A stretch of 64,000 nt of DNA from Blautia schinkii DSM 10518 (lineage in GTDB: Bacteria; Bacillota; Clostridia; Lachnospirales; Lachnospiraceae), in the NCBI GenBank assembly GCA_000702025.1, contig JNKJ01000008.1:124001-188000 (forward strand). The letters are read 5' to 3'. The position numbers and the translations under genes are program-made. Under the pieces are notes generated by a model. It searched no databases. It had not been told where the DNA came from and was given only the letters and a program-made list of their open reading frames with translations. This document shows positions 1,076 through 17,931 of the stretch, piece after piece. Each line of letters opens with the position of its first letter. The first letter of the stretch is position 1.

Positions 1076-2302
1076 TTACGTTATTACATTAACCATCCTA
1101 AAATTCAATTCCGCCTTTATTATCTTCAGCCACTCTCTCTGCGCTTCCGTAATCCACTTATTATCCGGAAACAGTTCACAATATGCCAACAGCTGTCCAA
1201 CACGCCGAAGATTCTTCTTTCTGTCAGCCACACAATTTTTCGTTTTTACAAGCACAGAGAATTCCTGCTTAATCCTATCCGGTGGAATCATTGTACCCTC
1301 CTCAAACATATAGATATCCGGATATTCCTTGAGATTCCTGCAGTATTCCTCTGGAACTGTTCCCCATTGCTCCACTGTCTCCTGCGAATATAGGCCTTTT
1401 TCTTCATCATTGTCATCATTGGCCTCGACCGCTGACTCGGAAGCCCCGCATATCCGTCCAACCTTGTTACCCTCTTTGTCGCAAATCAGCAGCGGCCCGG
1501 AGTGGCATTCTTTTTCTCCTAAATATTTATTATGCGTAAAAAACAGGCGCTCCTTTTTCATAGCGACAGCTTGTAATCCGTTTTTATCTATCTCCGCGTT
1601 CATAATAACAAGACACCGTGCCATTTTCCCCTGAGCCGCCGCAGCAGAAACCTTGTGGTGTCCGTCGAGCAGAAGGCACATACAGCCGCTCAAATAGTAT
1701 GCAATCGCCCTGGGAAAATGTATGCCTTCTTCCAATCTATCAATATACTGTTTTACACATTGGGCATTAAATAAAGCCGCCCGCTCTGTCGGGAAAAGAA
1801 ACCCGGGAGCATCATAAAATTCACTCTCTCCTCCATACACACAATAAAGGTAATGCAAAAGGGAGCCTTCCTGGTATTTTCCGTTCCAGAAATGCTCCCG
1901 ACCATATACAGGAAACAGTTCAAAATCAGCTATCACATAATATCCGTCAGGCAGCAGGCCTATGACCGGGGAAATCGCCTCTATGGAATCCGGCAGATTT
2001 CTAAATCCACTGTTGATACGGTCCCGTACAGAAAAACATTCATCCAGTGAAATATTTTCCGCGCCATATCCCCTAAAGAGCAAATCGCTGGTAGTACCGG
2101 CAGTTTCTATACGGGCACTTGCAAGGTAGTGTGTTCCAAGACAGATATCATAATACTGTCCCGGAAGTTCAATACAGCTAAGCTTATCTTTCCCACCCGT
2201 CAGCCTCAACAGTGCAGCATCACGGCAAAAATGTACATTAGAATCCAACCGGCAGATTTGTGTAACCACCGGACGACTGTGTGTATTTTTTGTTTTTTTC
2301 AA
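1076..2302 (-). CDS. Hypothetical protein with ParB/Srx-like DGHHK motif
   Basis: A 408-residue protein of no family I can name firmly. Residues 205-225 contain CLLLDGHHKVSAAAAQGK, which resembles the ligand-binding loop (DGHHR type) of the ParB/sulfiredoxin fold; that fold occurs in CTP-binding partition proteins, DNA nicking enzymes and serine kinases. The preceding segment with a helix and HFPRAIAYYL fits the same fold. The start is TTG at 2302, overlapping the TGA of the LRR gene by one reading step (TTGA) with GGAGG 7 bases upstream, so the two genes are translationally coupled. It is the last gene of the cluster and is followed by a terminator. The activity is unknown; the ParB-like reading rests on one motif. 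Confidence 0.6.
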   Translation of the reverse strand: MKKTKNTHSRPVVTQICRLDSNVHFCRDAALLRLTGGKDKLSCIELPGQYYDICLGTHYLASARIETAGTTSDLLFRGYGAENISLDECFSVRDRINSGFRNLPDSIEAISPVIGLLPDGYYVIADFELFPVYGREHFWNGKYQEGSLLHYLYCVYGGESEFYDAPGFLFPTERAALFNAQCVKQYIDRLEEGIHFPRAIAYYLSGCMCLLLDGHHKVSAAAAQGKMARCLVIMNAEIDKNGLQAVAMKKERLFFTHNKYLGEKECHSGPLLICDKEGNKVGRICGASESAVEANDDNDEEKGLYSQETVEQWGTVPEEYCRNLKEYPDIYMFEEGTMIPPDRIKQEFSVLVKTKNCVADRKKNLRRVGQLLAYCELFPDNKWITEAQREWLKIIKAELNFRMVNVIT

Positions 2303-3129
2303 TTACATTCCTCCCTATATATATTCAGCCCGCAGCATCCGTTAAAAGTATCTTCTCCCATATTTCTGAGATTTTCAGATAAATATATTTCCTCCAGATT
2401 TTCACATCCAAGAAATGCATTCCTGCCGATTTTCTCTACGTTGTCAGGTACCCACAGCTTTTTCAGCCCGGACTCTGAAAAGGCAAAGTTCTCTATACAC
2501 CTTAGTGAATCGGGCAGGATAACCTTCTCCAGCTTTTTACATAAATAAAAGGAATCCTCCCCGATTACAGCAGTTCCGGGCGGTATGGTATAATATGCCT
2601 CATCTCTTAGTGGCGGATAGCAAAGTAATGTTTTCATATTCTTGTCAAACAAAACGCCATTCTCCGAAGTGAACCTTAAATCCCCATCTGACACACTGAT
2701 TTTTTTCAAGCCCTGCCTTGTAAACACTTCAAAACAATCCCCATCATCCTGATACATAAGCGGCACGTGCTTATCACCTATAAACAATTCCCTGAAACTG
2801 TTTTTTAACTGTGAAGGCAAATAAATCTCTTGTAACGGACAGGCATAAAAAGAACCCGCTCCCATATATTCCAAGCTATCCGGGAATTTCACCTTCGACA
2901 GATGGCTGCAGCCCCAAAATGCACAGGTTTCAATACGTTTTATTGTGTGCGGCAGCATAACATGCTCCAGATACTCACAGCATTCAAATGCATACCCGCC
3001 TATTGCAGTGACAGGACAGTAGCCGTCAAAGCTTTCAGGAATCTCAATATACGAAGCGCGCCCTGAAAAACCATCAATCACACCATTTCCAGCTTTATCC
3101 ATATGCCAGATGAATCCATTACCGTTCAT
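2299..3129 (-). CDS. BspA-like leucine-rich repeat protein (LRR_5 type)
   Basis: A 276-residue protein built from LRR_5 repeats, seen as recurring IGGYAFECCEYLEHVMLP, IETCAFWGCSHLSKVKFP, IENFAFSESGLKKLWVP and IGRNAFLGCENLEEIYL units. Such repeats form a solenoid used for protein binding. Many BspA proteins are exported, but this one has no signal peptide, so it is probably cytoplasmic and an adaptor for the surrounding system. The start ATG has GGAGG 9 bases upstream. It overlaps the following ParB-like gene. The middle section (about residues 95-150) does not fit the repeat pattern. Confidence 0.85.
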   Translation of the reverse strand: MNGNGFIWHMDKAGNGVIDGFSGRASYIEIPESFDGYCPVTAIGGYAFECCEYLEHVMLPHTIKRIETCAFWGCSHLSKVKFPDSLEYMGAGSFYACPLQEIYLPSQLKNSFRELFIGDKHVPLMYQDDGDCFEVFTRQGLKKISVSDGDLRFTSENGVLFDKNMKTLLCYPPLRDEAYYTIPPGTAVIGEDSFYLCKKLEKVILPDSLRCIENFAFSESGLKKLWVPDNVEKIGRNAFLGCENLEEIYLSENLRNMGEDTFNGCCGLNIYREECN

Positions 3130-3223
3130 ATTGCAATTCCTCCAAAAATTACAATTCCTTGAAAATTATAATTACTTCCAAAATTGAAATCACTTTGGTT
3201 AGAGGCATCCCTGACCTTCTGCA

Positions 3224-3682
3224 TCATCCTGCATATAACCTCTTATGTTCAAAAGGAACCATCTGCATGAGCAGTGAATGATAGCTCGTCAATCTCTCCT
3301 GCGTCACCGTACCATCTGTTTCGTACTGCTTTAAAACATCATCCAGTCTTTGGAATAAAAGCTCCGCCCGATTCTTCATAACTGCTGCATTTTCCTCAGT
3401 CAGTGAGAGCCAGCCTGGTTTCTCCCCCTGACACTCTTTTCTGTAAGATAAATCCTCCAGCAAAACCACATGCCGGAAGGGAAAGGAAAGCTTAAGCACA
3501 TACCCCGGAAAATCCACACGCATATATTCACCTGAAAGCTGGGTGCGGCAGAAATAGAATCGGGCACAAAGCTTATCGTTTTCAATTGTCAGCTGCGGCC
3601 ACTGTAATTCAAGCTGCAGAGGAACAGTGGCTGTCACTACCGGATGTCTCTGTATATTTTTCATTAATTCTCTGCCTGTCAT
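3224..3682 (-). CDS. Hypothetical 152-residue cluster protein
   Basis: I do not recognise this family. The protein is soluble, without signal peptide or membrane segment, and mixes beta-strand-like stretches (VPLQLELQWPQLTI, YVLKLSFPFRHVVLL) with a helical C-terminal half. Its ATG overlaps the TGA of the C39-like gene (ATGA, 3679-3682), implying translational coupling and probably a physical or functional partnership. Genes this short sitting directly after a protease-like gene are often chaperones, inhibitors or substrates, but nothing in the sequence decides that. Confidence 0.6.
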   Translation of the reverse strand: MTGRELMKNIQRHPVVTATVPLQLELQWPQLTIENDKLCARFYFCRTQLSGEYMRVDFPGYVLKLSFPFRHVVLLEDLSYRKECQGEKPGWLSLTEENAAVMKNRAELLFQRLDDVLKQYETDGTVTQERLTSYHSLLMQMVPFEHKRLYAG

Positions 3683-4329
3683 ATTGCTGTACCTCCCTCT
3701 ATGGGCCTATAGGCACTTACCATATAGTTCCCTCCGGTTTCCCAAGCCTTCTGAAAATCATTCCATTCATGTACTTTTCCTGCACCGTCAAGAACACCGG
3801 AATCATTTACAATGACCTTCACATGTTCCGGATCTGTCTTGTCAATCCCTGTAACCTCAATCATGTGATTGGCACTTAACCATGGAAAGGATGCCAGCAG
3901 AGGATTTTCCAGCACAGCATTATGTACCGAGACAAGCGGCTTACCGCCGTTTTCCAGCACCTGTTCTATATCCTCCAGCTCCGCGTCATACTCCCTCTCC
4001 ACCAAAAGCCCCATAGCTTCTAAAAGCTTGCCTGCATCCTCAGGTGAGGTTCCGTTTTCGTACCACCCCTGCCGCTCGGCAAATTCCACCATCTTCTCTT
4101 CACTGAATTCCTTGTTCAACAGGCTTTCTGCAACAAATTCCTGACTCACAACAGCACAGCTCATTTCCTCTTGCTGCAGATGCCAGTGTTCGGCCTCCTC
4201 CTTGGGCTCACCTATTATTTCCCTGCTGCCCTCCTGCTCCTGTTGCTCCAAAGCTTCCACGTTCATCGGGATTTCTTCTATTTCTTGTATTTCTTCTATT
4301 TCTTCTTCATCATCAAATTCCCATCCCAT
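3679..4329 (-). CDS. C39-like papain-fold protein with acidic leader
   Basis: A 216-residue protein. The ATG at 4329 is chosen because AGGAGGAGG lies just upstream; a longer reading to 4410 would overlap the ATPase gene and lacks a site. Residues 1-40 are a strongly acidic low-complexity leader (EFDDEEEIEEIQEIEEI). The rest resembles the peptidase C39-like family: Cys58 in SCAVVSQEF, His155 in NHMIEVTGI and Asp176 in VNDSG would form a Cys-His-Asp triad, so catalysis is possible. No transporter domain is fused, unlike bacteriocin-processing C39 proteases. It sits between the HerA-type ATPase and the 152-residue protein. Substrate unknown; it could process another cluster protein. Confidence 0.75.
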   Translation of the reverse strand: MGWEFDDEEEIEEIQEIEEIPMNVEALEQQEQEGSREIIGEPKEEAEHWHLQQEEMSCAVVSQEFVAESLLNKEFSEEKMVEFAERQGWYENGTSPEDAGKLLEAMGLLVEREYDAELEDIEQVLENGGKPLVSVHNAVLENPLLASFPWLSANHMIEVTGIDKTDPEHVKVIVNDSGVLDGAGKVHEWNDFQKAWETGGNYMVSAYRPIEGGTAI

Positions 4330-4388
4330 AGCAGTCCTCCTCCTAATATACCAGTGCAGGGGGTTCATGACAACATTCCCCGCTTCGG

Positions 4389-7070
4389 TTATCTCCTGAT
4401 CTTCACCCAAGCAGCGGCATCATCCATGTCTCCGCAGACAATTGCCTGGCCTACGCCTAAAGCCGGGATCATGGAATATTGATCCGGGCGAAGGGCCATG
4501 CTGGCTGCCATAACCTCACAGTCGTCGGGGTGTGTAAGGCGGTGGCTGATTTTGTAATTCGTATTTTTCAGCACATCAGGGATAAGCCTTGTGGGAATCT
4601 GATCCACTATCATAAGTCCCTGACCGTATCCACGAATTTCCGAAAGAATATTACTGAAAAGGTCGGCCGCTGCCTGGTGAGGATTACCTGCACCTGAGCC
4701 TGTGGTCTCTGTTTTCGTGAGAACATTGTGGGCTTCCTCCACAACCATCAGATGAAGCAGCTTATTCTGCTGGGCCTTTTGACGGTAGGTAATGTCACTG
4801 GAATAAGCGGAAATACGATACTCATACATAGCCAGTAGGAGCAGCGACATAATAAGCGCCTTATCACTGCCGGAAAGGCGGCTCACATTAATGATACATT
4901 TCCGGCTGAACAGCTCCGGATAGTCCACGGATTTCTTCGTGTTTAGAATCTGTCCCCGTGTTCCTCTCTTCAAAGACTTAAAACGCGTATTGAGGATCTC
5001 TACAAAATTATCCTTATTTTTTTGCGCATACGTTTTTTTCTTCATTACCTCCGCAGACATGTTTATGATATCATCCACATCGGGATACCAGGGTAGCGGA
5101 AAAGCCCGCTCTTGTTCATAACCTGGCCCTGTGAATTTTGTGAGCGTCTCATAGATTGTTTCCTCAATCAGAATCGGGATCACTTCTTCTGAGGGCAGCA
5201 CGGAATTAAGTAAGGTGGTCATGCTCTCGCAGTGGTTGAGCAAATCTGTCTTTGCCCCCGGTGCGGCTGCCGGTTCGAAGAGGTTGATACGAAGAGGATT
5301 TATCACGGCTCCCTTGTATTCCTCAGGGTCTGTTCCCGGCATGAAAATCAGAAAACGCTCCTCCTCAGGAAGTCCCTTATTCTTTTCGATTGCCCAGCGT
5401 ACATAATCATCCTTTGCCGGTTCCAGAATCATGACTGGTACTTTTCGTTCTATTACCTCGTTAATAATGCGCTTACAGGTGGTGGATTTACCAAAGCCTG
5501 TTCCTCCTGCAACCAGACAGTGACGTACCAGGGCATCGGGGTCGATTTTGTATTCATTATTCTGTTCCACACCCATGTCCATCACGCGCCCCAGAGATAT
5601 GGAATCCCCCTCTAAAAACGCCGGGTTGTTTGCAAATCGCACAGCCGTTTTTGTCAGCCGGAGCCCGGGTACATCCCTTCTGGGCAGCGAGGTGGCCAGG
5701 CTGAGCTCCGCAGTGTTCATCGGTGTGCTCAGATATTGATACCGCCGTCCCAGAATATGCCATACATCATTTTTGTAATCGTATCCTTCCAGGTGCCTTG
5801 CCTCCTCATTCACAAGAGGAATAAGGTCAAACTGATCCCTGACAATGGGAAGCGCACCGGAGTCCTCTCTTAAAAGATGCAGGCGGATTGGCTCCAGGTA
5901 GGATTCTTTCCCTGAGTAAATGGAACGCAGCATACCCATGACCGTCAGTACATCTTTAGAAGTCGCGCCCAGGACATAAACGCCTGTGTTCCAATATCCA
6001 AGGTTCCTTCCCTCTTTCAGCCGTTCAATATGTTTATCGGTACACTCCTCCGCATACTGAGCGAATTTGTCAAGATACTGAGTAGTCATAGAGCTTGAAT
6101 ATGTCATCGTAATGGATTTATGGGTATCGGCTCCCATGGCACCTCCCAGGATACTGCCCACAATGGGAAGTGCACCACCCAGCACACTTCCTAACATTCC
6201 GCCAAGAGGACCACCCAGTAAAGCTCCTGCACCGGCAAGCCCTTCGCCGATTGCTTTTCCGATGCCCATACCTGCATATCCGCCGATTCCTTTGTCCTTC
6301 TGCTCACTCTGTCCCCTGGATTCATTCACACTGCGGTTTACTGCCGTATGTATCTCACTTCCCAGCTTACGAAGCTTTTCTATGATCTCAGAAATTTCCA
6401 AATCCTGCATAGGGTCAGCAATCACCAGCATGGCATAATCCTTCTCATAACCATATTCATCACGGATTCCGAAAGCGAGCTGGTCAAGCGTCTGCAGCAG
6501 TCCTGCATCTGTACCGTCACGAAAAGAGGGAATGCCAGTGACCGCACCAATAGAGCGCATGGAGCCTAAAGGCAGAGCGATTTTCTGATACATTTCTCCG
6601 CTTTTTATGTCTAAAGCCTTTAAATCCATACCCGGCATACTGGCAAAAGCAGCCTCCTTAATCTGCTCAATCGCATCAGAAGCACTCACTGTCTGCTGCA
6701 GGGAGGTGGTGCCTATGTATAAATGCGTCTCTCCTTCATGGCGGAGAAGAAGAAACAAGAGCCGGTAATTCCAGGCGTGCAGAGTCGAGAGAACTCCCTG
6801 CCATCTGCTGAGCAAGTCGTAGTTTTCGGAAAAATCAGGATGAATGGGCAGCCTTATGACCTGCAGCCATGTGATAAAGCCATGTTCACACGGAAGCTCC
6901 AGGAAACGCCGCTCACCCGAACGGTTCAGATAACTGCGCTCCAGAAAATGGTCCAGCAGACGCTGGTAAAATTCATCCGGAACCCGGATTTCGTTTGGAA
7001 TTTCCAGGTTTTTCATATCAATGCCTTTGAACAGGTCTTTAAAATAGATATCTCTGTATAAATCTGCCAT
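4389..7070 (-). CDS. HerA/VirB4-type ATPase with glycine-rich hydrophobic segment
   Basis: An 893-residue protein. The C-terminal half is a FtsK/HerA superfamily motor: Walker A GGTGFGKST at 522-530, Walker B LMVVEEAHN at 774-782, and a later MIVDQIPTRL segment typical of VirB4/HerA (DUF87) proteins. The N-terminal 250 residues are unassigned. Residues 261-314 are a dense glycine/alanine/leucine stretch (GGPLGGMLGSVLGGALP) resembling a glycine zipper and possibly membrane-active. Relatives pump DNA or protein or assist DNA end resection, but no nuclease gene (NurA type) or conjugation gene is adjacent. AGGAGG precedes the ATG. It lies 19 bp after the Hsp70-propeller gene, suggesting cotranslation with the chaperone-like proteins. 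Confidence 0.88.
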   Translation of the reverse strand: MADLYRDIYFKDLFKGIDMKNLEIPNEIRVPDEFYQRLLDHFLERSYLNRSGERRFLELPCEHGFITWLQVIRLPIHPDFSENYDLLSRWQGVLSTLHAWNYRLLFLLLRHEGETHLYIGTTSLQQTVSASDAIEQIKEAAFASMPGMDLKALDIKSGEMYQKIALPLGSMRSIGAVTGIPSFRDGTDAGLLQTLDQLAFGIRDEYGYEKDYAMLVIADPMQDLEISEIIEKLRKLGSEIHTAVNRSVNESRGQSEQKDKGIGGYAGMGIGKAIGEGLAGAGALLGGPLGGMLGSVLGGALPIVGSILGGAMGADTHKSITMTYSSSMTTQYLDKFAQYAEECTDKHIERLKEGRNLGYWNTGVYVLGATSKDVLTVMGMLRSIYSGKESYLEPIRLHLLREDSGALPIVRDQFDLIPLVNEEARHLEGYDYKNDVWHILGRRYQYLSTPMNTAELSLATSLPRRDVPGLRLTKTAVRFANNPAFLEGDSISLGRVMDMGVEQNNEYKIDPDALVRHCLVAGGTGFGKSTTCKRIINEVIERKVPVMILEPAKDDYVRWAIEKNKGLPEEERFLIFMPGTDPEEYKGAVINPLRINLFEPAAAPGAKTDLLNHCESMTTLLNSVLPSEEVIPILIEETIYETLTKFTGPGYEQERAFPLPWYPDVDDIINMSAEVMKKKTYAQKNKDNFVEILNTRFKSLKRGTRGQILNTKKSVDYPELFSRKCIINVSRLSGSDKALIMSLLLLAMYEYRISAYSSDITYRQKAQQNKLLHLMVVEEAHNVLTKTETTGSGAGNPHQAAADLFSNILSEIRGYGQGLMIVDQIPTRLIPDVLKNTNYKISHRLTHPDDCEVMAASMALRPDQYSMIPALGVGQAIVCGDMDDAAAWVKIRR

Positions 7071-7089
7071 ATTCCTACCTCCTGCTTTC

Positions 7090-9582: not shown

Positions 9583-9590
9583 ATACACAC

Positions 9591-9908
9591 CTACCGTTTT
9601 TCTTTGTCAGCCTCCGCTTTGGCTTTTTCCAACTCATTGGCATCATGATTCGTCCAGTAGCGGGACGGATTGTTGCTGTTGATGTCTCTCTCCAGCTTGT
9701 CAGAATAGTAGCGCACATTATCGCTGGCGCTTCCAAATGCCACACCCGAGTGCTTACGGGAATCCAGCTCACTGCGCTCCTCCGCTTTTTCTTCTGATTC
9801 CTCGATTTCCTTTGTTTCCGAATCCTCTTCTAAAAGCTCCTGCACCTCTTCAGGCTCTAATTCTTCTGCCTCTTCCAACTCATCCATCTCATCATAATCT
9901 TCGTACAT
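9591..9908 (-). CDS. Small highly acidic protein
   Basis: A 105-residue protein starting MYEDYDEMDELEEAEE. The ATG at 9908 is preferred because the codons just upstream spell AAGGAGGAATTTATT, an ideal ribosome binding site; a longer reading to 9926 would put that site inside the gene. The first half is almost entirely Glu/Asp, the second half is a mixed-charge helix with SGVAFGSASDNVRYYSD before it. There is no cysteine and no double-glycine cleavage site. It lies between the two Hsp70 genes, 8 bp before the second. It could be a regulator, a client or a co-chaperone-like partner. No family recognised. Confidence 0.75.
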   Translation of the reverse strand: MYEDYDEMDELEEAEELEPEEVQELLEEDSETKEIEESEEKAEERSELDSRKHSGVAFGSASDNVRYYSDKLERDINSNNPSRYWTNHDANELEKAKAEADKEKR

Positions 9909-9975
9909 AATAAATTCCTCCTTCATTTTTTACTATTCTTTATGTCCACTTTGCTCAAGGTCATGACAGCTATAA

Positions 9976-12501
9976 TTATATTTCTTTTGTCAACAACGTT
10001 ACAGAATATGGAATATAGCCATGCTGTTTCCTATAGCGGAAATACGCTGCATAAATCATACGTATCGCATGGTCAGACCATCGGTCAAGCCTGCCTGTCA
10101 ATCCCAGCAGGATATTTCCGGAAGCATCTGTAAAGCCCACCTTCCATATTTTTCCGTTACCTTTCAAATATACCTGTAAAAGAGCAGAGACATCTTGGAA
10201 TTTCAATTCTTCGTCTTTGAAATATCGATTGGTAATAGCCTTTCTTCTGATTTTAACAATACGTAGGTTTGTGAAGATATACACATCATAGTAATTCAGA
10301 ATATTTTTATACTTATCAGGAGAGCCATAATTTGTATAAAATAATAATTCTTCACCTTCCAGCAGGTTAGCTGCAGAATGAAATATAGCACTTATTTCCG
10401 GATTCAACGCTTCGGGACTGCACATAGGCGTATCCCACAGAGTATCTCGGATAATTGAATTGACTGTTTTTTTTGCTTCACCTTTAAACGCTGTTCTCTG
10501 AATAAAAGCGGCATTGCTCTCATTTACCATTTCCTTATAAACGGTTTCCAGTGCGCAATCCGCATCCTTATTACAATTCAGAAATAATTCTGTCGCCTGA
10601 ACTGCGGGGAGTCTTGACAGAAGCCTCACTTTCTCTGCGCCAGTAACAATACTATTACTTTTTACCTCAGAAGCTGTCAATTCCTCTAATGCTCTCGCGG
10701 CATCTTTGTCACCTTGTGCGGCAGCCTTTTTAAGCCAGTTTTTCGCTTCTACATGATTTTGCTCAACACCCCTCCCAAGAATGTACATACGGGCCAAGTT
10801 GTATTGCGCCATTGGCAGCCCCTGTTCCGCCGCCCTTTTACACCAGGCGAAGGCCTGCTCATAGTTTTTAGAAACCCCTTGTCCTTCCGCATACATGGCT
10901 GCCAGGTTGCTCTGGGCAATTACGTGGCCCTGGTCTGCGGCCTTAAGGAAATATCGCGCGGCTGTCCGGTAATCATCTTCTGTTTGCTTGTTATAGTAGA
11001 ATGAGCCTAAGGCAAACAGGCGGTCAGGGCTTTCCGGGATAGTACCATCTTGTACGGAATCCGACGGTTCTTGAGAAGCTGTTGGCTGCTGCGGATGAAC
11101 CTGATGTTGCGGGCGGTCTGGTTGCTGCGGACGAAACTGCTGCTGCGAATAATCTGGTTTCTGCGGATGGACCGGTTGCTGCGTGTGAGCCGGCTGCTTA
11201 GAATATGCCGTTTCTGCGCGCCGCGGCTGCCGGTATTCTGTAGATTGTCTTTGGTAATCGTTGGGTTTCTTCAGCAGGGGCTGATAGACAAGCCCCAGTG
11301 ACACGATTTCCTGAGGCCTTGGCATAATAAACAATCTGTTTTTGTCGCCTGTGATTTTGGGCAGTCTTATATCCCCATATTTCGTCATAATGCCGCTCAG
11401 CATTTCTCTGACAAAATACCACTGGCTGTTGCCGCCGGTAAGTATAACCATATCTATATCTGTGGGAGTAAATCCTGGAAGCTTTTTTGCCGTATTTGAC
11501 AGACATCCCCAAATCAGTTCCGGAAACTGGCGCAGATAGCTTGACAACAATCCCTCAAACTCTGTTCTGTCAAGACAGAAAGCAGAAGGTGAAATACCAA
11601 GCATATTATAGAAAGGCACCAGGAAACTGCAATAGGTAATCGCCTCCCCTCGATTGAGCGCGTCGGATAATGTACGCTCCTTCCATTCTTTTATCTTCTC
11701 ACTTTGCTGCTCAGGTATTGATTGTGCAATCTGCTCCGAAATCCCGTTACGCCTCAGCATCTGAACAAAATAGCCACCTAACCGAGAATCAATTTCTCTG
11801 CCTCCTAAAAGAATAGGATTATTATCTCCCGGCCAGGTCGTGATCACTTTGTTTTGAGGATTTATTCCCGGGGTATATTGGCACACAGCTAAATCAGTTG
11901 TTCCGGCTCCCATATCCACCACCAAAAATAAAAAGGGATGATTTCCGTTTAATATTCCAATCTGCTTCATCTCTTCCTGTTTCTGCACAAGAACCGCATT
12001 GATTGACGCTGTTGCCTCATCTGTTCCCCTCACATGGGGAAAACCCGCCTGTCTTGCTGTTTCCACCATAAATCTCTGGGTATCTTCGCTCCATTTTGCA
12101 GGATAGCTGACAACCGTCTCTTCTGTATCATCCGCCTCCCCCAGAAACTGCCGCTGTTCCTGATATTTCTCAAAAAGATACAGAAACATCTGTTTTGTCA
12201 ATGCGCGCGCTTCCGCACGCTTTTGCGAATCATAGCTTTCCAGTTCCACCTTAAAATTACGGTGCAGTACACCTCCTGGCCGAAGGGTTTCCGCCTCCAC
12301 ACCATACCAGCTATGCATTTGCGAGCCTTTTCCGGCTGTCTGGATAATGGTTGGCAACGCGGCGCTCCCGCTTCCACTGTCAAAAATCACCGGTTTGAAA
12401 TCAAAACGGCCGCCATCGACTGAGCCGTCATTTTTATATCGTTTCACCTTCATAAATGTAGAACTGGTACCAAAGTCAATACCAATTAATCTCTTTGCCA
12501 A
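9976..12501 (-). CDS. Hsp70-like protein with Sel1 repeats and PH-like C-terminus
   Basis: An 841-residue protein beginning at TTG 12501 with AAGGTGGTGA upstream. Residues 1-410 are an Hsp70 ATPase domain very close to the one at 7090 (shared IGIDFGTSSTF, VVDMGAGTTD and LTGGxSQWYFV). A Pro/Gln-rich repeat linker (about 415-490) follows, then Sel1/TPR-like repeats (NLAAMYAEGQGVSKNYEQA, NLARMYILGRGVEQN) at about 500-610. The last 120 residues (YDVYIFTNLRIVKIRRKAI) resemble a bacterial PH domain. It probably works as an ATP-dependent scaffold with a protein-binding solenoid. With its paralogue it likely forms a pair with different partners. Confidence 0.9.
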   Translation of the reverse strand: MAKRLIGIDFGTSSTFMKVKRYKNDGSVDGGRFDFKPVIFDSGSGSAALPTIIQTAGKGSQMHSWYGVEAETLRPGGVLHRNFKVELESYDSQKRAEARALTKQMFLYLFEKYQEQRQFLGEADDTEETVVSYPAKWSEDTQRFMVETARQAGFPHVRGTDEATASINAVLVQKQEEMKQIGILNGNHPFLFLVVDMGAGTTDLAVCQYTPGINPQNKVITTWPGDNNPILLGGREIDSRLGGYFVQMLRRNGISEQIAQSIPEQQSEKIKEWKERTLSDALNRGEAITYCSFLVPFYNMLGISPSAFCLDRTEFEGLLSSYLRQFPELIWGCLSNTAKKLPGFTPTDIDMVILTGGNSQWYFVREMLSGIMTKYGDIRLPKITGDKNRLFIMPRPQEIVSLGLVYQPLLKKPNDYQRQSTEYRQPRRAETAYSKQPAHTQQPVHPQKPDYSQQQFRPQQPDRPQHQVHPQQPTASQEPSDSVQDGTIPESPDRLFALGSFYYNKQTEDDYRTAARYFLKAADQGHVIAQSNLAAMYAEGQGVSKNYEQAFAWCKRAAEQGLPMAQYNLARMYILGRGVEQNHVEAKNWLKKAAAQGDKDAARALEELTASEVKSNSIVTGAEKVRLLSRLPAVQATELFLNCNKDADCALETVYKEMVNESNAAFIQRTAFKGEAKKTVNSIIRDTLWDTPMCSPEALNPEISAIFHSAANLLEGEELLFYTNYGSPDKYKNILNYYDVYIFTNLRIVKIRRKAITNRYFKDEELKFQDVSALLQVYLKGNGKIWKVGFTDASGNILLGLTGRLDRWSDHAIRMIYAAYFRYRKQHGYIPYSVTLLTKEI
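11083..11210 (-). repeat. Repetitive Pro/Gln-encoding linker DNA
   Basis: Irregular 15-21 bp units built on TTGCTGCGG (plus strand) encode QQPxxP-like peptide repeats between the ATPase and Sel1 domains. It occupies the same position as the 21-bp array in the paralogous Hsp70. Confidence 0.7.
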
Positions 12502-12546
12502 AGTCTCACCACCTTATATTTAGAAATAGCTTCCGCTCCGCCAAGT

Positions 12547-13431
12547 TTAATATAGCACACTATTCTCCAAAATCTTTCCGTCAAAGACATAGGAATCTTC
12601 AAAAACTCCATCCATATCCCGGTCGTATTCTGTTTTCATACTGTCATCCACACCGTCGTAATTTGTGTCATACCAAGTCCACCGAACCATCTCATCCACA
12701 TATCCGTCCCCATTCAGATCACGGAAAAACTGCGAAATTTTCAAGGGAGAATACACAGGGACACTGTCCATTATAGCAATTTGAATCTTCCCGATATTCG
12801 TGTAGTCACAGCTCCCCGTATTCCAATCAGTCACCTGGAAATCAGCATAGGTGTACTTGACAGAAAATCTGGAGTTTTCCACATCATCCGGAAAAGCGAT
12901 AACGGTTTCAACCTGATCGACCGTCCCGTTATAATCAGCGTCTGTCCAAACGGCCTGAAAGTCGTTATGAACTCCGTCGTTACATTCATCGATGCTCCAC
13001 CTGTCGTTAATTCCGTCACCGTTATTATCACTGATCAGCAAGGCATGATTACCAGGGAAGGTATAAAAAACGGATTCATAAAGACCGTCATTATTTCTGT
13101 CCTGATTTGTCTCTGTCTGAGCCTCTCCATATAGGCGGGGGATGATTGATTCTATATCAAAAGCTTCATAATCAATCATGGACATTTTGTCATAATAATT
13201 ACCATCTTCCACATAAAACCGTGCAATTTCATTCCCCGGATACAGATACTCCCGTATGCTTGGAATAATTCCGTTGTCAATTAAGTAGGCTTCATATGCC
13301 CGTTCCTCCTCAGCATAGATATCCTCAATGCCATAATCATTAGATGCCAGGATTGTACTGTACCCTGACAGGGAAATTGAAGCAGCCGATACCATCATAA
13401 TAAAATAATGCAATCTGGATTTCCTTTTCAT
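12547..13431 (-). CDS. Secreted protein with EF-hand/dockerin-like calcium loops
   Basis: A 294-residue protein. ATG 13431 is chosen (AGGAG 9 bases upstream) because it yields a clean signal peptide: basic MKRKSR, a hydrophobic core and SGYSTILAS. From about residue 100 there are six or seven acidic loops of the DxDxDG type (DRNNDGLYES, DNNGDGINDR, DADYNGTVDQ, DLNGDGYVDE, DTNYDGVDDS, DRDMDGVFED), typical of calcium-binding EF-hand-like or thrombospondin type 3-like repeats. The protein should act outside the cell. It is encoded between the radical SAM gene and the Hsp70-Sel1 gene, an unusual position for a secreted protein. Possibly it is what the kinase's outer domain senses. Confidence 0.8.
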   Translation of the reverse strand: MKRKSRLHYFIMMVSAASISLSGYSTILASNDYGIEDIYAEEERAYEAYLIDNGIIPSIREYLYPGNEIARFYVEDGNYYDKMSMIDYEAFDIESIIPRLYGEAQTETNQDRNNDGLYESVFYTFPGNHALLISDNNGDGINDRWSIDECNDGVHNDFQAVWTDADYNGTVDQVETVIAFPDDVENSRFSVKYTYADFQVTDWNTGSCDYTNIGKIQIAIMDSVPVYSPLKISQFFRDLNGDGYVDEMVRWTWYDTNYDGVDDSMKTEYDRDMDGVFEDSYVFDGKILENSVLY

Positions 13432-13466
13432 TAACATACACTCCTCTCTTTTTGAAAAATTCCGGT

Positions 13467-14624
13467 TCACCTCGGTAATGGAGGTCCGGCATAGAGCAAT
13501 ATATGCTCCCTTTCGTGAATACACGGGTAGGCATCACACGGCTTGTCCAGGTATGGCAAGGGACCGGCAGTAAGTACCATAGGAGGCTCTTCATGTGCAG
13601 ACGGATAGAGCATCTTACCCGTTATATTGTATTTGCATATACAATTTGAATGTTCATACAGTGAGCCTTGATAAAGGTTAAAGCTTCGGCAGCCTCCCGC
13701 ACAGTCAGCGCCCATACCACAGGTAAGACACTTTCCGGTTAACCAGTTAGGGACAAACTTTCGGTTATAAGCAAAGCTTTCTGAAGATTCCCAGATTTCC
13801 TTCAGTGAAACTTCCCTTAGATTTCCTTCTATATAGCGCTTGTCACAGAGTGAGGCACACCCCCGTACATTCCCCTTGCTGTCCAGGCCGATTGCACTGA
13901 GCCCGGCCGCGCAGCCATGAAACGTATGGAGGAGTTTTCCTTCTCTTTCCACATAATACCCCAGATTATCACCTAAAATGATGGGGAGTTTTTTTTTGTG
14001 TGACAGAGTTGTATAGAAATCAAATACTTTTTCGATATCCTCCGCCTCCAAAGACGGAAGCCTGTTGTCTCTGGCGTTTCCCATCATAGTTACCTGCTGC
14101 CACTGCCACGCAAGAATCTCATGTTCTGCCATCCAGTCATACATTGCGCCCAAAACTTTCACACATCTTTTGGTTATGGTCGTTACTGCCGTCAGTGGAA
14201 TTTTTATTTCTGCCATCCTCCGGCAGAATCGTTCTGACTCCTCAAACGCATCTTTCCTGCCGCGTATCGTATTATGTAATTCTTCCGTTCCATCTATAGA
14301 AATCGCTGCGGACACAATATGAGAATCCTGGAAATCAAGAAAATCCTGCTCTGTTTTCTGATAGCCGTTTGTCACAATATCACAGATGATGCCATTATCA
14401 GAAAGATACCGGGCCAATCGCGACCAGTAAGGGCAAAGTGTGACTTCTCCGCCTATAAGAGTCACTCTTTCACAGCCCAGATCAATCAGCTGGTCCGCAA
14501 TATGAAACGCCTCCGGCTCGCTTAATTCATTTTCCCGGCCCTCGCCTGCCTGGGAACCGCAATGCAAACAACGCATGTTACAGGTTTTCGTAAGCTCCCA
14601 TACACAGGACTTTAACTGGTACAT
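13467..14624 (-). CDS. Radical SAM/SPASM domain protein
   Basis: A 385-residue protein. CNMRCLHC at residues 15-22 is the CxxxCxxC motif that holds the radical SAM 4Fe-4S cluster. The C-terminal SPASM region has cysteines in GCASLC, CLTCGMGADCAGGC and CIC, sufficient for auxiliary clusters. SPASM enzymes mostly modify peptides or proteins (sactionine or other crosslinks, cofactor maturation). A further roughly 50-residue tail carries CDAYPC. ATG 14624 is preferred over the GTG codons at 14636-14639. This is the first gene of the second transcription unit of the cluster and has the shared motif promoter. Its substrate is unknown; no obvious cysteine-rich precursor peptide is nearby. Confidence 0.9.
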   Translation of the reverse strand: MYQLKSCVWELTKTCNMRCLHCGSQAGEGRENELSEPEAFHIADQLIDLGCERVTLIGGEVTLCPYWSRLARYLSDNGIICDIVTNGYQKTEQDFLDFQDSHIVSAAISIDGTEELHNTIRGRKDAFEESERFCRRMAEIKIPLTAVTTITKRCVKVLGAMYDWMAEHEILAWQWQQVTMMGNARDNRLPSLEAEDIEKVFDFYTTLSHKKKLPIILGDNLGYYVEREGKLLHTFHGCAAGLSAIGLDSKGNVRGCASLCDKRYIEGNLREVSLKEIWESSESFAYNRKFVPNWLTGKCLTCGMGADCAGGCRSFNLYQGSLYEHSNCICKYNITGKMLYPSAHEEPPMVLTAGPLPYLDKPCDAYPCIHEREHILLYAGPPLPR

Positions 14625-14697
14625 TTTAACTACCACCACCCTACTTTTTAATATGAGTTTTCACTCTATTTTATGATCCTGCCATTATAGTTCTTCT

Positions 14698-14740
14698 ATT
14701 ATAGCAATACAAAGCATTCAATTCCGAAAACTTTTTTCCG
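14698..14740 (-). promoter_or_regulatory. Cluster promoter 2 with shared 16-bp motif
   Basis: An extended -10 (TGCTATAAT on the minus strand, TATAAT at 14698-14703) lies about 75 bp before the radical SAM gene. No good -35 is present. Instead CGAAAACTTTTTTCCG (plus strand, 14725-14740), identical to the copy at 17974-17989, sits 21 bp upstream of the -10. This is where a class II activator or an unusual -35 element would lie. Confidence 0.7.
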
Positions 14741-14808
14741 TTTAAAATAGATATAAGCCAGTAAAATCTGCCAGAAACCTCAAGCCGACAATAGGAATCC
14801 ATACAAAA

Positions 14809-14833
14809 AGACCACCATAAAAAGCGGTGGTCT
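14809..14833 (-). terminator. Terminator after the kinase gene
   Basis: On the minus strand AGACCACC pairs with GGTGGTCT across a 9-base loop and is followed by TTTT. It ends the kinase unit and separates it from the promoter of the radical SAM unit. Confidence 0.85.
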
Positions 14834-14840
14834 AATAATT

Positions 14841-16745
14841 TTACTGTATGGCTGTTTTAACCCTTACCAGCATTTGTGTACGTTTTACCTCTTTTGTTGT
14901 CTTGTCAGTTATGGTTGCGGTAATGGTAGCCCATCCCTGCTGGTTGCCGGTGATACGGCCTTTTTCATCCACAGAGGCTACCACCGGGTTATCACTTTCC
15001 CAGGAAACCTCTAAAATGGGGTCTAAAAAGCCAATCTCTGCATCTACAATCAGCTTACCTCCATAAAGGTCAGCAAAGGTCTTTACATAATCCAGGCATT
15101 GTTCGCTCAGGAGATTCCACTGCCAGTTCTCCTCATCAAAGTAAAGAATATGGCTCCCCTCCAAGTCAGTGATTTTATGGCTTTCTCCATTTCCGTCAAT
15201 GAGAGTACAGTTCTTGATATCCAGCAGTGCGGAAGTCTCGGTATAATTGTAATTGGCAAATATCACCCCTATATATTCCAGATTAAATTCGTTTGTGTCC
15301 TGAAAGGGCAGTTCCATATGCATGACATTATCCGGGGTATAAAAAGGATCATAAGTTAATCCGGCATTTTGCCATCCGCGCTTGTCTCCCTCCCCGTTAT
15401 AAATGGAAAATATCCCATAGGTTTCAAAGACTTCCGTGGTATCCCTGGGGTGGAGGTAATCCTTTAAATTGATTCTGACAGACATAGAAGTCTGTACTAA
15501 CATTTCCATAATATTATGCTCCATAGGATGCCGGACATTTTGTTCTGTGAGCACAATTGAAGCATCGGTTTCCAACGGAAATTTTGTCAAATCCAGTTTC
15601 GTGTGCTCCATAGACTGCTGTGTATCTCCGAATCCCGGAATGATTCTCCCCATCAGAAATGCTCCGCCTGCTCCTCCGCAGAGAAAAACACATAAAAGTG
15701 CAAAAGGAAGCATCTTCTTTTTATATTTTTTCTTTGCCATGGGAGACTCTTTTTCCCTTTGAGCAGGTTCTCTGAGAACACCTGACACAATGTCGTATAA
15801 TTTCTGAACATCCTTTTGCATTTCATTTACACTTTGATATCGGTTTTCAGGAAGTATCTGGAGTCCCTTTTTTAAAATTTCGTTGAGATATTGAGCAGAC
15901 CGCTCCTTTTCATGCAAGAGCAGTTTTGAATAAGGAGAAATCAGATTATTGACATTAAGAAGCTCCCTGTCCTCCGGAAACTTTTCCCCTTCCAGAATCT
16001 CATACCAAAGTACACATACGGAATACAAATCCGTCCACGGACCTAGTTCATCCCGTTTATGCAGCATCACCTCCGGTGCCATATATCCAGGTTTTCCAAT
16101 GTAATAATCATTTTCAAGCATCAACCCATCTTTTATTGAATATACACTGTTAAAATCAAGCAAAAGGATTCCTGAAAACAGCGTCCCCTTATCGTCAGGA
16201 GCCAGTAGAAAGATATTGTCCGGACTGATGTCAAGATGAAGCAGTCCATGACTATGAAATGGCTGCAGAGCCTGCAGTAAACTCTGTATAAACAGAATCG
16301 TATCGGTGAGCGTCAAAAACCCGAACTCATCTTTCAGCAGTTCAGAAAGAACCTGTCCTTTCCGGGATGTCAAAACCGTATAAACTGTATGGTTCGCCTC
16401 AAAGGAATCCAAATTTTCGGCGATATGCCGGCTTTCATCCTCAGACAAGGTCAGGTGTGCATGATTTCCTTCTACAAAGCTTTTTTTATGGCAATGAAAG
16501 AAGTCCTCCGCACTGTCTTCGATTACCAGATTCCACTGAGAATCCCGGGTAATCCTTCCCTGTTCATCCAGGGGATAGAGTTCCTTCAGCAGCACAATAT
16601 GCTTGTGTTCCGGCATGTAGGTATCTGAATAATATGCCCGGTAAACAATAGAATTGGAACCGGAACCCACATAATCCTCAATGATGTAGGTGCGGCTCTC
16701 GCTCTTCAATTGATATCCCTTTGGGAGAAGTGTTCTTTGGCTCAT
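14841..16745 (-). CDS. Membrane Ser/Thr protein kinase with extracellular Big_2-like domain
   Basis: A 634-residue eukaryotic-type kinase. Motifs: glycine-rich loop VGSGSNSIVYRA (26-37), probable catalytic Lys54 in LLKELYP, catalytic loop HLDISPDN (170-177), metal-binding DFN (197-199) where most kinases have DFG, and APE (223-225). A single transmembrane helix spans about 345-367 after a KKKYKKK stop. The outer part ends in a bacterial Ig-like Big_2-type domain (NPVVASVDEKGRITG, WATITATITD). The topology is a cytoplasmic kinase with an outside sensor. AGAGGGG precedes the ATG. It follows the regulator gene by 43 bp. Likely targets are the Hsp70, ATPase or regulator proteins of the same cluster, but this is inference. 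Confidence 0.88.
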   Translation of the reverse strand: MSQRTLLPKGYQLKSESRTYIIEDYVGSGSNSIVYRAYYSDTYMPEHKHIVLLKELYPLDEQGRITRDSQWNLVIEDSAEDFFHCHKKSFVEGNHAHLTLSEDESRHIAENLDSFEANHTVYTVLTSRKGQVLSELLKDEFGFLTLTDTILFIQSLLQALQPFHSHGLLHLDISPDNIFLLAPDDKGTLFSGILLLDFNSVYSIKDGLMLENDYYIGKPGYMAPEVMLHKRDELGPWTDLYSVCVLWYEILEGEKFPEDRELLNVNNLISPYSKLLLHEKERSAQYLNEILKKGLQILPENRYQSVNEMQKDVQKLYDIVSGVLREPAQREKESPMAKKKYKKKMLPFALLCVFLCGGAGGAFLMGRIIPGFGDTQQSMEHTKLDLTKFPLETDASIVLTEQNVRHPMEHNIMEMLVQTSMSVRINLKDYLHPRDTTEVFETYGIFSIYNGEGDKRGWQNAGLTYDPFYTPDNVMHMELPFQDTNEFNLEYIGVIFANYNYTETSALLDIKNCTLIDGNGESHKITDLEGSHILYFDEENWQWNLLSEQCLDYVKTFADLYGGKLIVDAEIGFLDPILEVSWESDNPVVASVDEKGRITGNQQGWATITATITDKTTKEVKRTQMLVRVKTAIQ

Positions 16746-16788
16746 AAATACCCCTCTTTTTCAATGCTCTATCTGTTTTACTTCAGAT

Positions 16789-17931
16789 TTACTTCCGTTT
16801 TTCTTCAATATATGCGGTTTTGCCGTTTTTCCCAAACAGCCTGCATAAGAGCCGCTCCATTTTCCAGCTCATAAAATCATCCTCGTTTTTTAAATGCAGA
16901 GATTGTATGATGAGATAATCAAATGGATTGTGTGGATTCAGCAATGTCATCCCACAAGCGGAAAGCATGAGATTCATTCTCTGGTAATGCTCTGCGGCAA
17001 AGCTATTTTCTGATACCTCAACACCCATACCTTCTGTGGCAAGATATAGAAGCAGCAGAGTTTTCCTGTTCACATCCCTCTTCCGGGAATACATTTCCTG
17101 CATGAACTTGGGCGAAGGCCAGTTCTTTTTAATAAGCTTTTGAAGCTTCGTATGAGAACCACTTTTTTTCTGGTAAGGAATCCCCATTCTGAGATAATCT
17201 TCCGTTGCCTGTTCGATACTGAGTTTTTTCTCCCTTGGAGCTCCGGCGTAATCAGTGTTAACATTGCCGTCTAATAAATAATCTACCATCAGTACAAACT
17301 TCCGGTACGCTGTATTATGATGAAGTCCGAATTGATACTCATACTGTTGCAAAAATTCCTTCAGCACATCTAAATCCTGTATGGTTTTAAACTCATCCTT
17401 GATTGAAACAGTGGTGTACTGTTCCGGCTCCGAGTTACTTAGCTTTCTCACTGCCTGTTGGGTTTCCAGAGAGCTTGTGGGTGACTGCTGATACCCTGAT
17501 TCCAGAAGAAGCTCCTGCGCTTTCGGATAATCGTATCCTTTCCTGAGACAGAATGCATAAATCAGCTCTTTGGGATTCCTGTAATGAATTCCGCTTTCTG
17601 CTGTGGAGAAAAGTATTTTCTCTGAGTTCTTTTCGTCTAAGCCTAAAGCAAAGCATATCTTAAATAATTCCTCTCTGTTTCCCGGCTGATTGCAGCCCTT
17701 CAGCCAATTCCGTACCTTTCTGGATATCGTCTCTTTGCTGTCTCCCGAAGCTGCTTCATATTCCGTCAATTTATCAATCAACCTGCTTTGCAGAGGTTCT
17801 TCCCCATGATAAGTCTCCTTCAATAAGGCAGAAAAACTGATGCCCTCCACCTTCTTTTCAATAAAAGAAACAATCTGATTTTCCTTTGTATCCTGCCCCT
17901 GAACCAGACAAAACACCTCCTGTTTCAACAT
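16789..17931 (-). CDS. Putative cluster regulator or hypothetical protein
   Basis: A 380-residue soluble protein of no family I can name. Residues around 50-90 (SKETISRKVRNWLKG...NREELFKICFALGLDE) look like a helix-turn-helix or small DNA-binding helical domain; the remainder is helical. It is the first gene of the cluster. Translation may not begin at ATG 17931, because the -10 at 17948-17953 would leave a leader of about 10 bases and no ribosome binding site, while AGGAGG lies inside the reading frame 8 bases before CTG 17907. Its own promoter contains the shared 16-bp motif, so it is the natural candidate for the motif-binding protein. Confidence 0.6.
   Translation of the reverse strand: MLKQEVFCLVQGQDTKENQIVSFIEKKVEGISFSALLKETYHGEEPLQSRLIDKLTEYEAASGDSKETISRKVRNWLKGCNQPGNREELFKICFALGLDEKNSEKILFSTAESGIHYRNPKELIYAFCLRKGYDYPKAQELLLESGYQQSPTSSLETQQAVRKLSNSEPEQYTTVSIKDEFKTIQDLDVLKEFLQQYEYQFGLHHNTAYRKFVLMVDYLLDGNVNTDYAGAPREKKLSIEQATEDYLRMGIPYQKKSGSHTKLQKLIKKNWPSPKFMQEMYSRKRDVNRKTLLLLYLATEGMGVEVSENSFAAEHYQRMNLMLSACGMTLLNPHNPFDYLIIQSLHLKNEDDFMSWKMERLLCRLFGKNGKTAYIEEKRK

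What the first reader, a model, noticed from the sequence alone, without database searches (positions are those of the whole stretch)
1076..17931. Twelve-gene cluster of chaperone-like, kinase, rSAM and HerA-type proteins: candidate undescribed system
Seen: one minus-strand block joining a possible DNA-binding protein, a membrane Ser/Thr kinase, a radical SAM/SPASM protein, a secreted calcium-loop protein, two Hsp70 paralogues, an acidic small protein, a HerA/VirB4-type ATPase, a C39-like papain-fold protein, an unknown, an LRR protein and a protein with a ParB-like motif. Several genes overlap (ATGA, TTGA) and the ends are closed by terminators. Known: each family alone is familiar; I know of no named system with this set. 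Inference: an ATP-dependent signalling or conflict/secretion machine in which an outside signal reaches the kinase and controls the Hsp70/ATPase complex.
Basis: partly seen in the sequence, partly recalled or inferred. Interest (0 to 1): 0.85.

Follow-up and report, generated by a model that had tools for sequence, protein, structure and literature searches.

The report
Hsp70–HerA–peptidase system of gut bacteria
Part of this gene block is a conserved and apparently unnamed bacterial system in which shortened Hsp70 proteins carrying swappable recognition domains sit beside a HerA-type motor and a peptidase, perhaps for conflict with phages or competitors; two of the twelve genes are an unrelated kinase pair.

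Summary
The block is real, but it is two units. g01-g02 (regulator-like protein plus membrane Ser/Thr kinase) is an independent pair: it recurs without HerA/Hsp70 nearby and is cut off by an internal terminator. g03-g12 holds a conserved core: HerA-type ATPase, Hsp70 nucleotide-binding domains lacking the peptide-binding half (with Sel1, LRR, RCC1 or unassigned C-termini), a C39/papain-like peptidase and a partner (g10). A scan found close HerA relatives in 23 other loci across Bacillota and Bacteroidota. The Hsp70 gene is near HerA in 22 of 24; the two misses are truncated contigs. A peptidase lies downstream of HerA in 21 of 22 readable loci: papain-like plus g10 (12) or a HExxH zincin (9), never both. 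Some wider HerA relatives sit with dynamin-like GTPases and toxin-immunity-like pairs, some on plasmids. Best reading: an NTP-switched conflict system in which Hsp70 proteins sense and HerA gates or moves a peptidase effector. Function is untested. The papers searched gave no description of this composition; nearest are the Hsp70-containing GTPase-centric conflict systems. The rSAM, secreted and LRR/ParB-like genes are not conserved core, although one relative fuses LRR to the ParB-like protein beside HerA.

The parts
16789..17931 (-). g01, 380 aa, regulator-like (by eye), no Pfam match; independent pair with g02
14841..16745 (-). g02, 634 aa Ser/Thr kinase, one hydropathy-predicted TM segment, C-terminal Big_2; independent pair with g01
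14809..14833 (-). intrinsic terminator separating g01-g02 from g03-g12
13467..14639 (-). g03, 390 aa radical SAM/SPASM; not conserved core
12547..13524 (-). g04, 325 aa, signal-like hydrophobic N-terminus and Asp-rich loops (by eye); not conserved core
9976..12501 (-). g05, 841 aa, Hsp70 nucleotide-binding domain + Sel1 repeats (core)
9591..9926 (-). g06, 111 aa acidic protein; five other core loci hold acidic proteins (cluster c9), homology to g06 not shown
7090..9588 (-). g07, 832 aa, Hsp70 nucleotide-binding domain + unassigned C-terminus, propeller-like by eye (core)
4389..7070 (-). g08, 893 aa HerA/VirB4-type ATPase with glycine-rich hydrophobic stretch about 262-312 (core)
3679..4329 (-). 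g09, C39/papain-like peptidase, likely start 4329 (MGWEFDDEEE...); Q, C, H and ND conserved in 10 of 10 aligned members (core)
3224..3682 (-). g10, 152 aa, neighbour of the C39 gene in all 12 C39-bearing core loci (core); candidate inhibitor or partner
2299..3129 (-). g11, 276 aa BspA-type LRR protein; accessory
1076..2302 (-). g12, 408 aa, conserved DGHHK motif (ParB-like by recall); an LRR-g12 fusion sits beside HerA in L089
1031..1059 (-). terminator hairpin and T-run after g12

Best explanation
g05 and g07-g10 are the core of an NTP-driven conflict (defence or competition) system. Shown: the gene linkage, the mutually exclusive peptidases, conserved peptidase and ATPase motifs, Hsp70 proteins with a nucleotide-binding domain and diverse C-terminal domains in place of the peptide-binding half, and a patchy distribution over two phyla. 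Inferred: the Hsp70 domain works as an ATP/ADP switch as in DnaK, and the fused Sel1/LRR/propeller part binds the trigger or a partner, in the way STAND-NTPase receptors use repeats. Inferred: the switch engages the HerA ring, probably membrane-associated through its glycine-rich stretch (and, in 17 of 24 loci, not the window, the small TM protein c2). Inferred: HerA then releases, threads or exports the peptidase (C39-like or zincin), which does the damage, while g10 holds it in check. g03, g04, g06, g11 and g12 are local accessories or neighbours; g01-g02 is a neighbour.
For: Hsp70 near HerA in 22 of 24 close-HerA loci, the 2 misses on truncated contigs; C39 in 12 and downstream zincin in 9, mutually exclusive; g10 in 12 of 12 of those C39 loci. 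Same genomes: of 200 family genomes, close HerA is in 2 (own and one other) and strong Hsp70 hits are in the same 2; of 341 class genomes, Hsp70 >=480 bits in 3 and HerA >1400 bits in 2 of these 3, the third being 73% complete with a 3,246-base contig. HerA and Hsp70 distances correlate (r=0.75, 15 loci, 0 of 5000 permutations). Pfam HSP70 matches in the 15 core proteins scanned end at or before position 352 of 599; recognised C-termini are Sel1, LRR_5, RCC1. The HerA model resembles HerA, VirB4, Sir2-HerA and DUF4297-HerA. Conflict flavour: ADP-ribosylglycohydrolase or Macro genes near at least 6 of 24 loci, five by Pfam and L072 by clustering; both Hsp70s match the PADLOC candidate PDC-M61B weakly (E about 5e-6, some 90 residues); distant HerA loci with dynamins and nuclease plus small-ORF pairs; a HerA-Hsp70-GTPase locus on an Anabaena plasmid.
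Against: No experiment. Apart from PDC-M61B, PADLOC gives generic kinase, HerA and rSAM matches (ten of twelve proteins). The genome samples hold few carriers: outside the window's own genome, close HerA in 1 of 199 family, 1 of 59 genus and 1 of 340 class genomes. The peptidases are conserved (mean identity 51% for C39 where HerA has 63%; 39% for zincin where HerA has 59%), not hypervariable as polymorphic toxins usually are. L073 has Hsp70 and HerA but no peptidase hit; L139 has a C39-profile hit without g10 and without HerA. G015 has a third, orphan Hsp70 on another contig from its HerA. G456 has an intermediate HerA (462 bits) without this Hsp70 type. The immunity role of g10 rests on position only; its confident model matches no known fold significantly. 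No close relative in viral contigs or phages. The HerA model is of middling confidence (mean pLDDT 63).
Confidence: 0.48

Rival explanations
1. An effector or peptide export machine: HerA is a membrane secretion motor, Hsp70 proteins are dedicated cargo chaperones, and the C39-like enzyme processes or is the cargo, as in polymorphic-toxin and RiPP export.
For: HerA resembles VirB4/TrwB; glycine-rich hydrophobic stretch; some distant HerA loci carry nuclease plus small-ORF pairs, annotated HNH endonuclease on Lactococcus pB26B; unrelated proteins share an acidic-aromatic N-terminus, 16 of 27 in the peptidase/acidic families against 15 of 390 other ORFs; some HerA-zincin loci carry DUF692 or rSAM maturases.
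Against: No channel subunit is conserved with it; the window lacks c2; the N-terminal rule was chosen after looking and family members are not independent.
Confidence: 0.27
2. A housekeeping chaperone-protease module: Hsp70-repeat adaptors select damaged proteins, HerA unfolds them, the C39-like peptidase cuts.
For: Hsp70 domain, Sel1 repeats and peptidase together; a DnaK gene (fragment in L074) directly upstream of HerA in L074, L092 and L093.
Against: Very patchy: outside the own genome, close HerA in 1 of 199, 1 of 59 and 1 of 340 genomes sampled; no peptide-binding domain; peptidase fold swaps between clades; plasmid relatives.
Confidence: 0.13
3. A chance row of unrelated genes.
For: True for g01-g02 and not excluded for g03-g04.
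Against: Core linkage holds in 22 of 24 loci over two phyla; one expected hit in the control DNA.
Confidence: 0.02

Closest known systems
GTPase-centric conflict systems with HSP70 (Kaur, Burroughs, Iyer, Aravind 2020, PMC7159879; passages read)
   Same: Hsp70 proteins including ones without the peptide-binding domain; repeats; peptidases; rSAM and zincin peptide-processing add-ons; NTPase switch; the Anabaena plasmid relative encodes a DO-GTPase-like protein (Pfam 25.5 bits, cut-off 27)
   Different: Here the constant partner is a HerA ATPase; in that paper's text the one occurrence found is a reference title. No GTPase family match in the window's twelve proteins; the C-terminal repeats are fused to the Hsp70 domain itself
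Sir2-HerA (Nezha) and DUF4297-HerA defence complexes
   Same: HerA-fold ATPase model match
   Different: No Sir2 or DUF4297 match in the window's twelve proteins; Hsp70 and a peptidase instead
Polymorphic toxin systems (Zhang et al. 2012, PMC3482391; passages read)
   Same: C39-type papain toxins (Tox-PLC39) are listed there; some distant HerA loci carry toxin-immunity-like pairs
   Different: The table passage read names HerA/FtsK for type VII (YueA-like); 'hsp70' has 0 occurrences in the held text (first 300,000 of 357,715 characters); peptidases here are conserved, not polymorphic
Type IV secretion ATPases VirB4/TrwB
   Same: Structural match
   Different: No mating-pair or relaxase match among the twelve window proteins apart from sub-threshold ATPase-superfamily hits of g08
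MADS (methylation-associated defence)
   Same: PADLOC mad6 and mad8 profiles match g02 and g08
   Different: Superfamily-level matches; NCBIfam MAD6 73.6 bits against a cut-off of 460
NCBIfam NF033849 ser_rich_anae_1
   Same: C-terminal half of g08 matches, E 5e-27
   Different: 93.7 bits against a cut-off of 650; no function given

Membership tests
Hsp70 (DnaK) chaperone | Hsp70 nucleotide-binding domain with phosphate loops | tested here: met
   A4 profile matches DnaK over positions 5-359 of 397, E 4.6e-20; GIDFGTS and DMGAGT invariant or nearly so in 18 rows
Hsp70 (DnaK) chaperone | C-terminal peptide-binding domain | tested here: not met
   Pfam HSP70 matches of the 15 core proteins scanned end at or before position 352 of 599; C-termini are Sel1, LRR, RCC1 or unassigned
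HerA/FtsK ATPase superfamily | DUF87/HerA core with P-loop and acidic Walker B | tested here: met
   DUF87 4.8e-11 above cut-off; TGxGK and EEAHN invariant in 18 rows; PDB match to HerA 1.6e-8
C39/papain-like peptidase | Q, C, H, D/N active-site residues | tested here: met
   conserved in 10 of 10 aligned members; Pfam score 22.6 against cut-off 24
GTPase-centric (GAP1) conflict system | DO-GTPase plus GAP1 pair | tested here: not met
   no GTPase family among the Pfam matches of the twelve window proteins; GAP1 itself was not searched for separately
Sir2-HerA / HerA-nuclease defence | Sir2, DUF4297 or NurA partner | tested here: not met
   no such match among the twelve window proteins
Polymorphic toxin system | toxin with adjacent immunity protein that neutralises it | tested here: inconclusive
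   g10 follows C39 in 12 of 12 core C39 loci; neutralisation not testable here
MADS | curated MAD6 score and the other mad genes | tested here: not met
   73.6 bits against cut-off 460; among the listed PADLOC rows only mad6 and mad8 appear (ten of twelve proteins, for g02 the best 25 of 32 rows)
any family above | anti-phage or anti-competitor activity | not testable with these tools
   needs experiment

The most novel reading that the evidence does not exclude
A bacterial immune receptor class built on an Hsp70/actin-fold ATPase instead of a STAND NTPase: Hsp70 nucleotide-binding domains with exchangeable LRR, Sel1 or propeller sensors trigger a membrane HerA ring that deploys a peptidase effector recruited through a shared short acidic-aromatic N-terminus and restrained by g10.
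Probability: 0.22. Interest if true: 0.92.

Novelty: new variant of a known kind. Interest (0 to 1): 0.66.

Why it matters
Hsp70 proteins are known as folding chaperones. A conserved family that has exchanged the client-binding half for LRR, Sel1 or propeller domains, and is tied to a HerA motor and a peptidase, would show the Hsp70 switch used for sensing or gating. It would give gut Bacillota and Bacteroidota a conflict or delivery machine that the defence library scanned here does not name, and it can be tested directly with a six-gene construct.

Tried and rejected

Limits: the 23 named loci come from a peptide-pattern scan, so they are not a full census, and some are near-duplicates (L071/L072; L074/L092; L076/L088). 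Profiles were partly built from the same loci. The genome samples share the window's own genome. The Mantel test ignores species phylogeny. Gene calls in relatives are longest-ORF calls and can hide genes on the other strand. The names SUKH, WHH and ParB-like and the DnaK switch logic are recalled, not from a call. The LytTR label is Pfam-tested in one member only (L088); others by clustering.
Full report
Observation. The block is not one unit. A strong hairpin with a T-run ends g02 at 14833-14809, and another ends g12. The likely start of g09 is 4329, behind AGGAGG.

Two units. g01 has matches at E<=0.001 in 13 of 200 family genomes, own included. I fetched seven other g01 loci; in 7 of 7 a g02-like kinase is the next gene (in one it runs off the stretch), and no Hsp70 or HerA homologue of the window was found in those stretches. 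Two of these genomes, G028 and G194, carry a distant HerA on another contig. So g01-g02 is an independent pair.

The core. The window's HerA (g08) has close relatives (best-segment identity 45-57%) in 23 named loci of Lachnospiraceae, Oscillospiraceae, other Clostridia and Bacteroidota. Six-frame profile searches of these 23 plus the window gave: Hsp70 domain in 22 of 24 (L078 and L093 lack it, and both contigs stop where it lies in their nearest relatives); C39-like peptidase in 12; HExxH zincin downstream in 9; never both. L073 has neither, and L091 and L093 end inside HerA. g10 is present in 12 of 12 of these C39 loci and in no other of the 48 loci profiled; L139, which has no HerA, has a C39-profile hit without g10. 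The small TM protein c2 is present in 17 of 24, not in the window. In control DNA (234,695 bases without HerA) only one profile hit appeared, the Hsp70 paralogue already known from that stretch. Not all loci are independent. By phmmer, g01 and g04 hit 0 of the 23 loci, g02 one (L092, E 2e-5), g03 one (L084), g12 one (L089).

Co-occurrence over genomes. Of 200 family genomes, close HerA is in 2 and the same 2 have strong g07 hits; a third has a weak hit, E 1.5e-4. Of 60 genus genomes, 2 have close HerA. Of 341 class genomes, Hsp70 of this type (481 bits or more; next 98) is in 3, HerA above 1400 bits in 2 of those 3, and an intermediate HerA (462 bits) in one without this Hsp70. The third Hsp70 genome is 73% complete and its contig is 3,246 bases. 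Each sample counts the window's own genome, so the independent carriers are few. HerA and Hsp70 distances correlate (15 loci, r 0.75; Bacillota only, 10 loci, r 0.83; 0 of 5000 permutations each).

The proteins. The Hsp70 proteins keep the nucleotide-binding domain (profile to DnaK E 4.6e-20; GIDFGTS and DMGAGT conserved in 18 rows); in the 15 core proteins scanned the Pfam match never reaches the peptide-binding half. C-termini carry Sel1 (g05, L073, L081), LRR_5 (L075, L076), RCC1 (L087) or nothing recognised. HerA models as HerA/VirB4, with Sir2-HerA, DUF4297-HerA and TrwB among the matches (mean pLDDT 63), and has a glycine-rich hydrophobic stretch. The C39 active-site residues are conserved in 10 of 10 aligned members, the zincin HExxH in 11 of 11. 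g10 models confidently (pLDDT 91.5) but matches no known fold significantly. In L089 an LRR is fused to a g12-like protein just upstream of HerA, which suggests that g11-g12 can belong to the system.

Wider relatives. Of 23 fetched loci with a more distant HerA, 7 have dynamin-like GTPases by profile; one (L068) has a full-length Hsp70 and one (L067) a diverged one. Some HerA genes are followed by a nuclease-like protein and a small ORF (Endonuclea_NS_2 E 5e-31 in L041). A Lactococcus plasmid typed as conjugative shows WYL, two dynamins, HerA and an annotated HNH endonuclease plus small ORF. On an Anabaena plasmid an Hsp70-GTPase fusion, a DO-GTPase-like protein (sub-threshold), HerA, a zincin-like protein with a Cys-rich tail (Pfam just under cut-off) and a DUF692 RiPP-type enzyme stand on one strand with other genes between. 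L139 has an Hsp70-like protein, a C39-like protein and dynamins within 20 kb without HerA.

Mechanism. Shown: linkage, conservation, mutual exclusion, domain make-up. Inferred: sensing by the C-terminal domains, an Hsp70 switch, HerA gating, a peptidase effector, restraint by g10. The shared N-terminus (M, one or two residues, E, bulky residue, then acidic) in 16 of 27 peptidase and acidic proteins against 15 of 390 other ORFs is a post hoc pattern over about three unrelated families. The main counter-evidence is that the peptidases are not hypervariable and that nothing is tested.

Novelty. Full-text searches listed no paper whose title or abstract start names this set. In PMC7159879 I read only passages: Hsp70, also without the peptide-binding domain, is a partner in GTPase-centric systems, and HerA occurs once, in a reference title. 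In PMC3482391 I read passages: HerA is named with type VII secretion, and C39-type toxins are listed. Other papers were seen as listings only. Most subscription papers and all bioRxiv preprints are outside that library, so a prior description cannot be excluded. I file it as a new variant of NTP-dependent conflict systems.

Noticed in passing
   Followed up: partly
L189 and L190 (Anabaena and Planktothrix plasmids): HerA, a 101-aa protein, a zincin-like protein with a Cys-rich C-terminus (CCDCSSYCSYDPNGCSP in L189) and, a little further, a DUF692 family enzyme: the peptidase itself may be a RiPP-type substrate. L136 has HerA, a 40%-identical zincin-like protein and an rSAM instead.
   Followed up: partly
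L139:8078-16871: LytTR-like (by clustering), Hsp70-like, C39-like and dynamin genes together without HerA, as if dynamin replaced HerA.
   Followed up: no
L074, L092, L093: A DnaK gene (fragment in L074) sits directly upstream of HerA; in L092 a tyrosine integrase precedes it.
   Followed up: partly
window 14841-17931: g01-g02: a recurrent pair of regulator-like protein and Ser/Thr kinase, 7 of 7 fetched loci.
   Followed up: yes
L192:532-11037 (Lactococcus cremoris pB26B): WYL regulator, two dynamins, HerA and HNH endonuclease plus small ORF on a plasmid typed as conjugative: a distant HerA system with a toxin-like cargo.
   Followed up: partly
L071, L075, L081, L089, L092: ADP-ribosylglycohydrolase, Macro or PARG-like genes near the core locus; L071 also has a vWA protein, dynamins and M48.
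   Followed up: partly
first 12 residues of c4, c3 and c9 proteins, for example window 4294-4329: Unrelated proteins share M-x(1,2)-E-bulky-acidic N-termini.
   Followed up: partly
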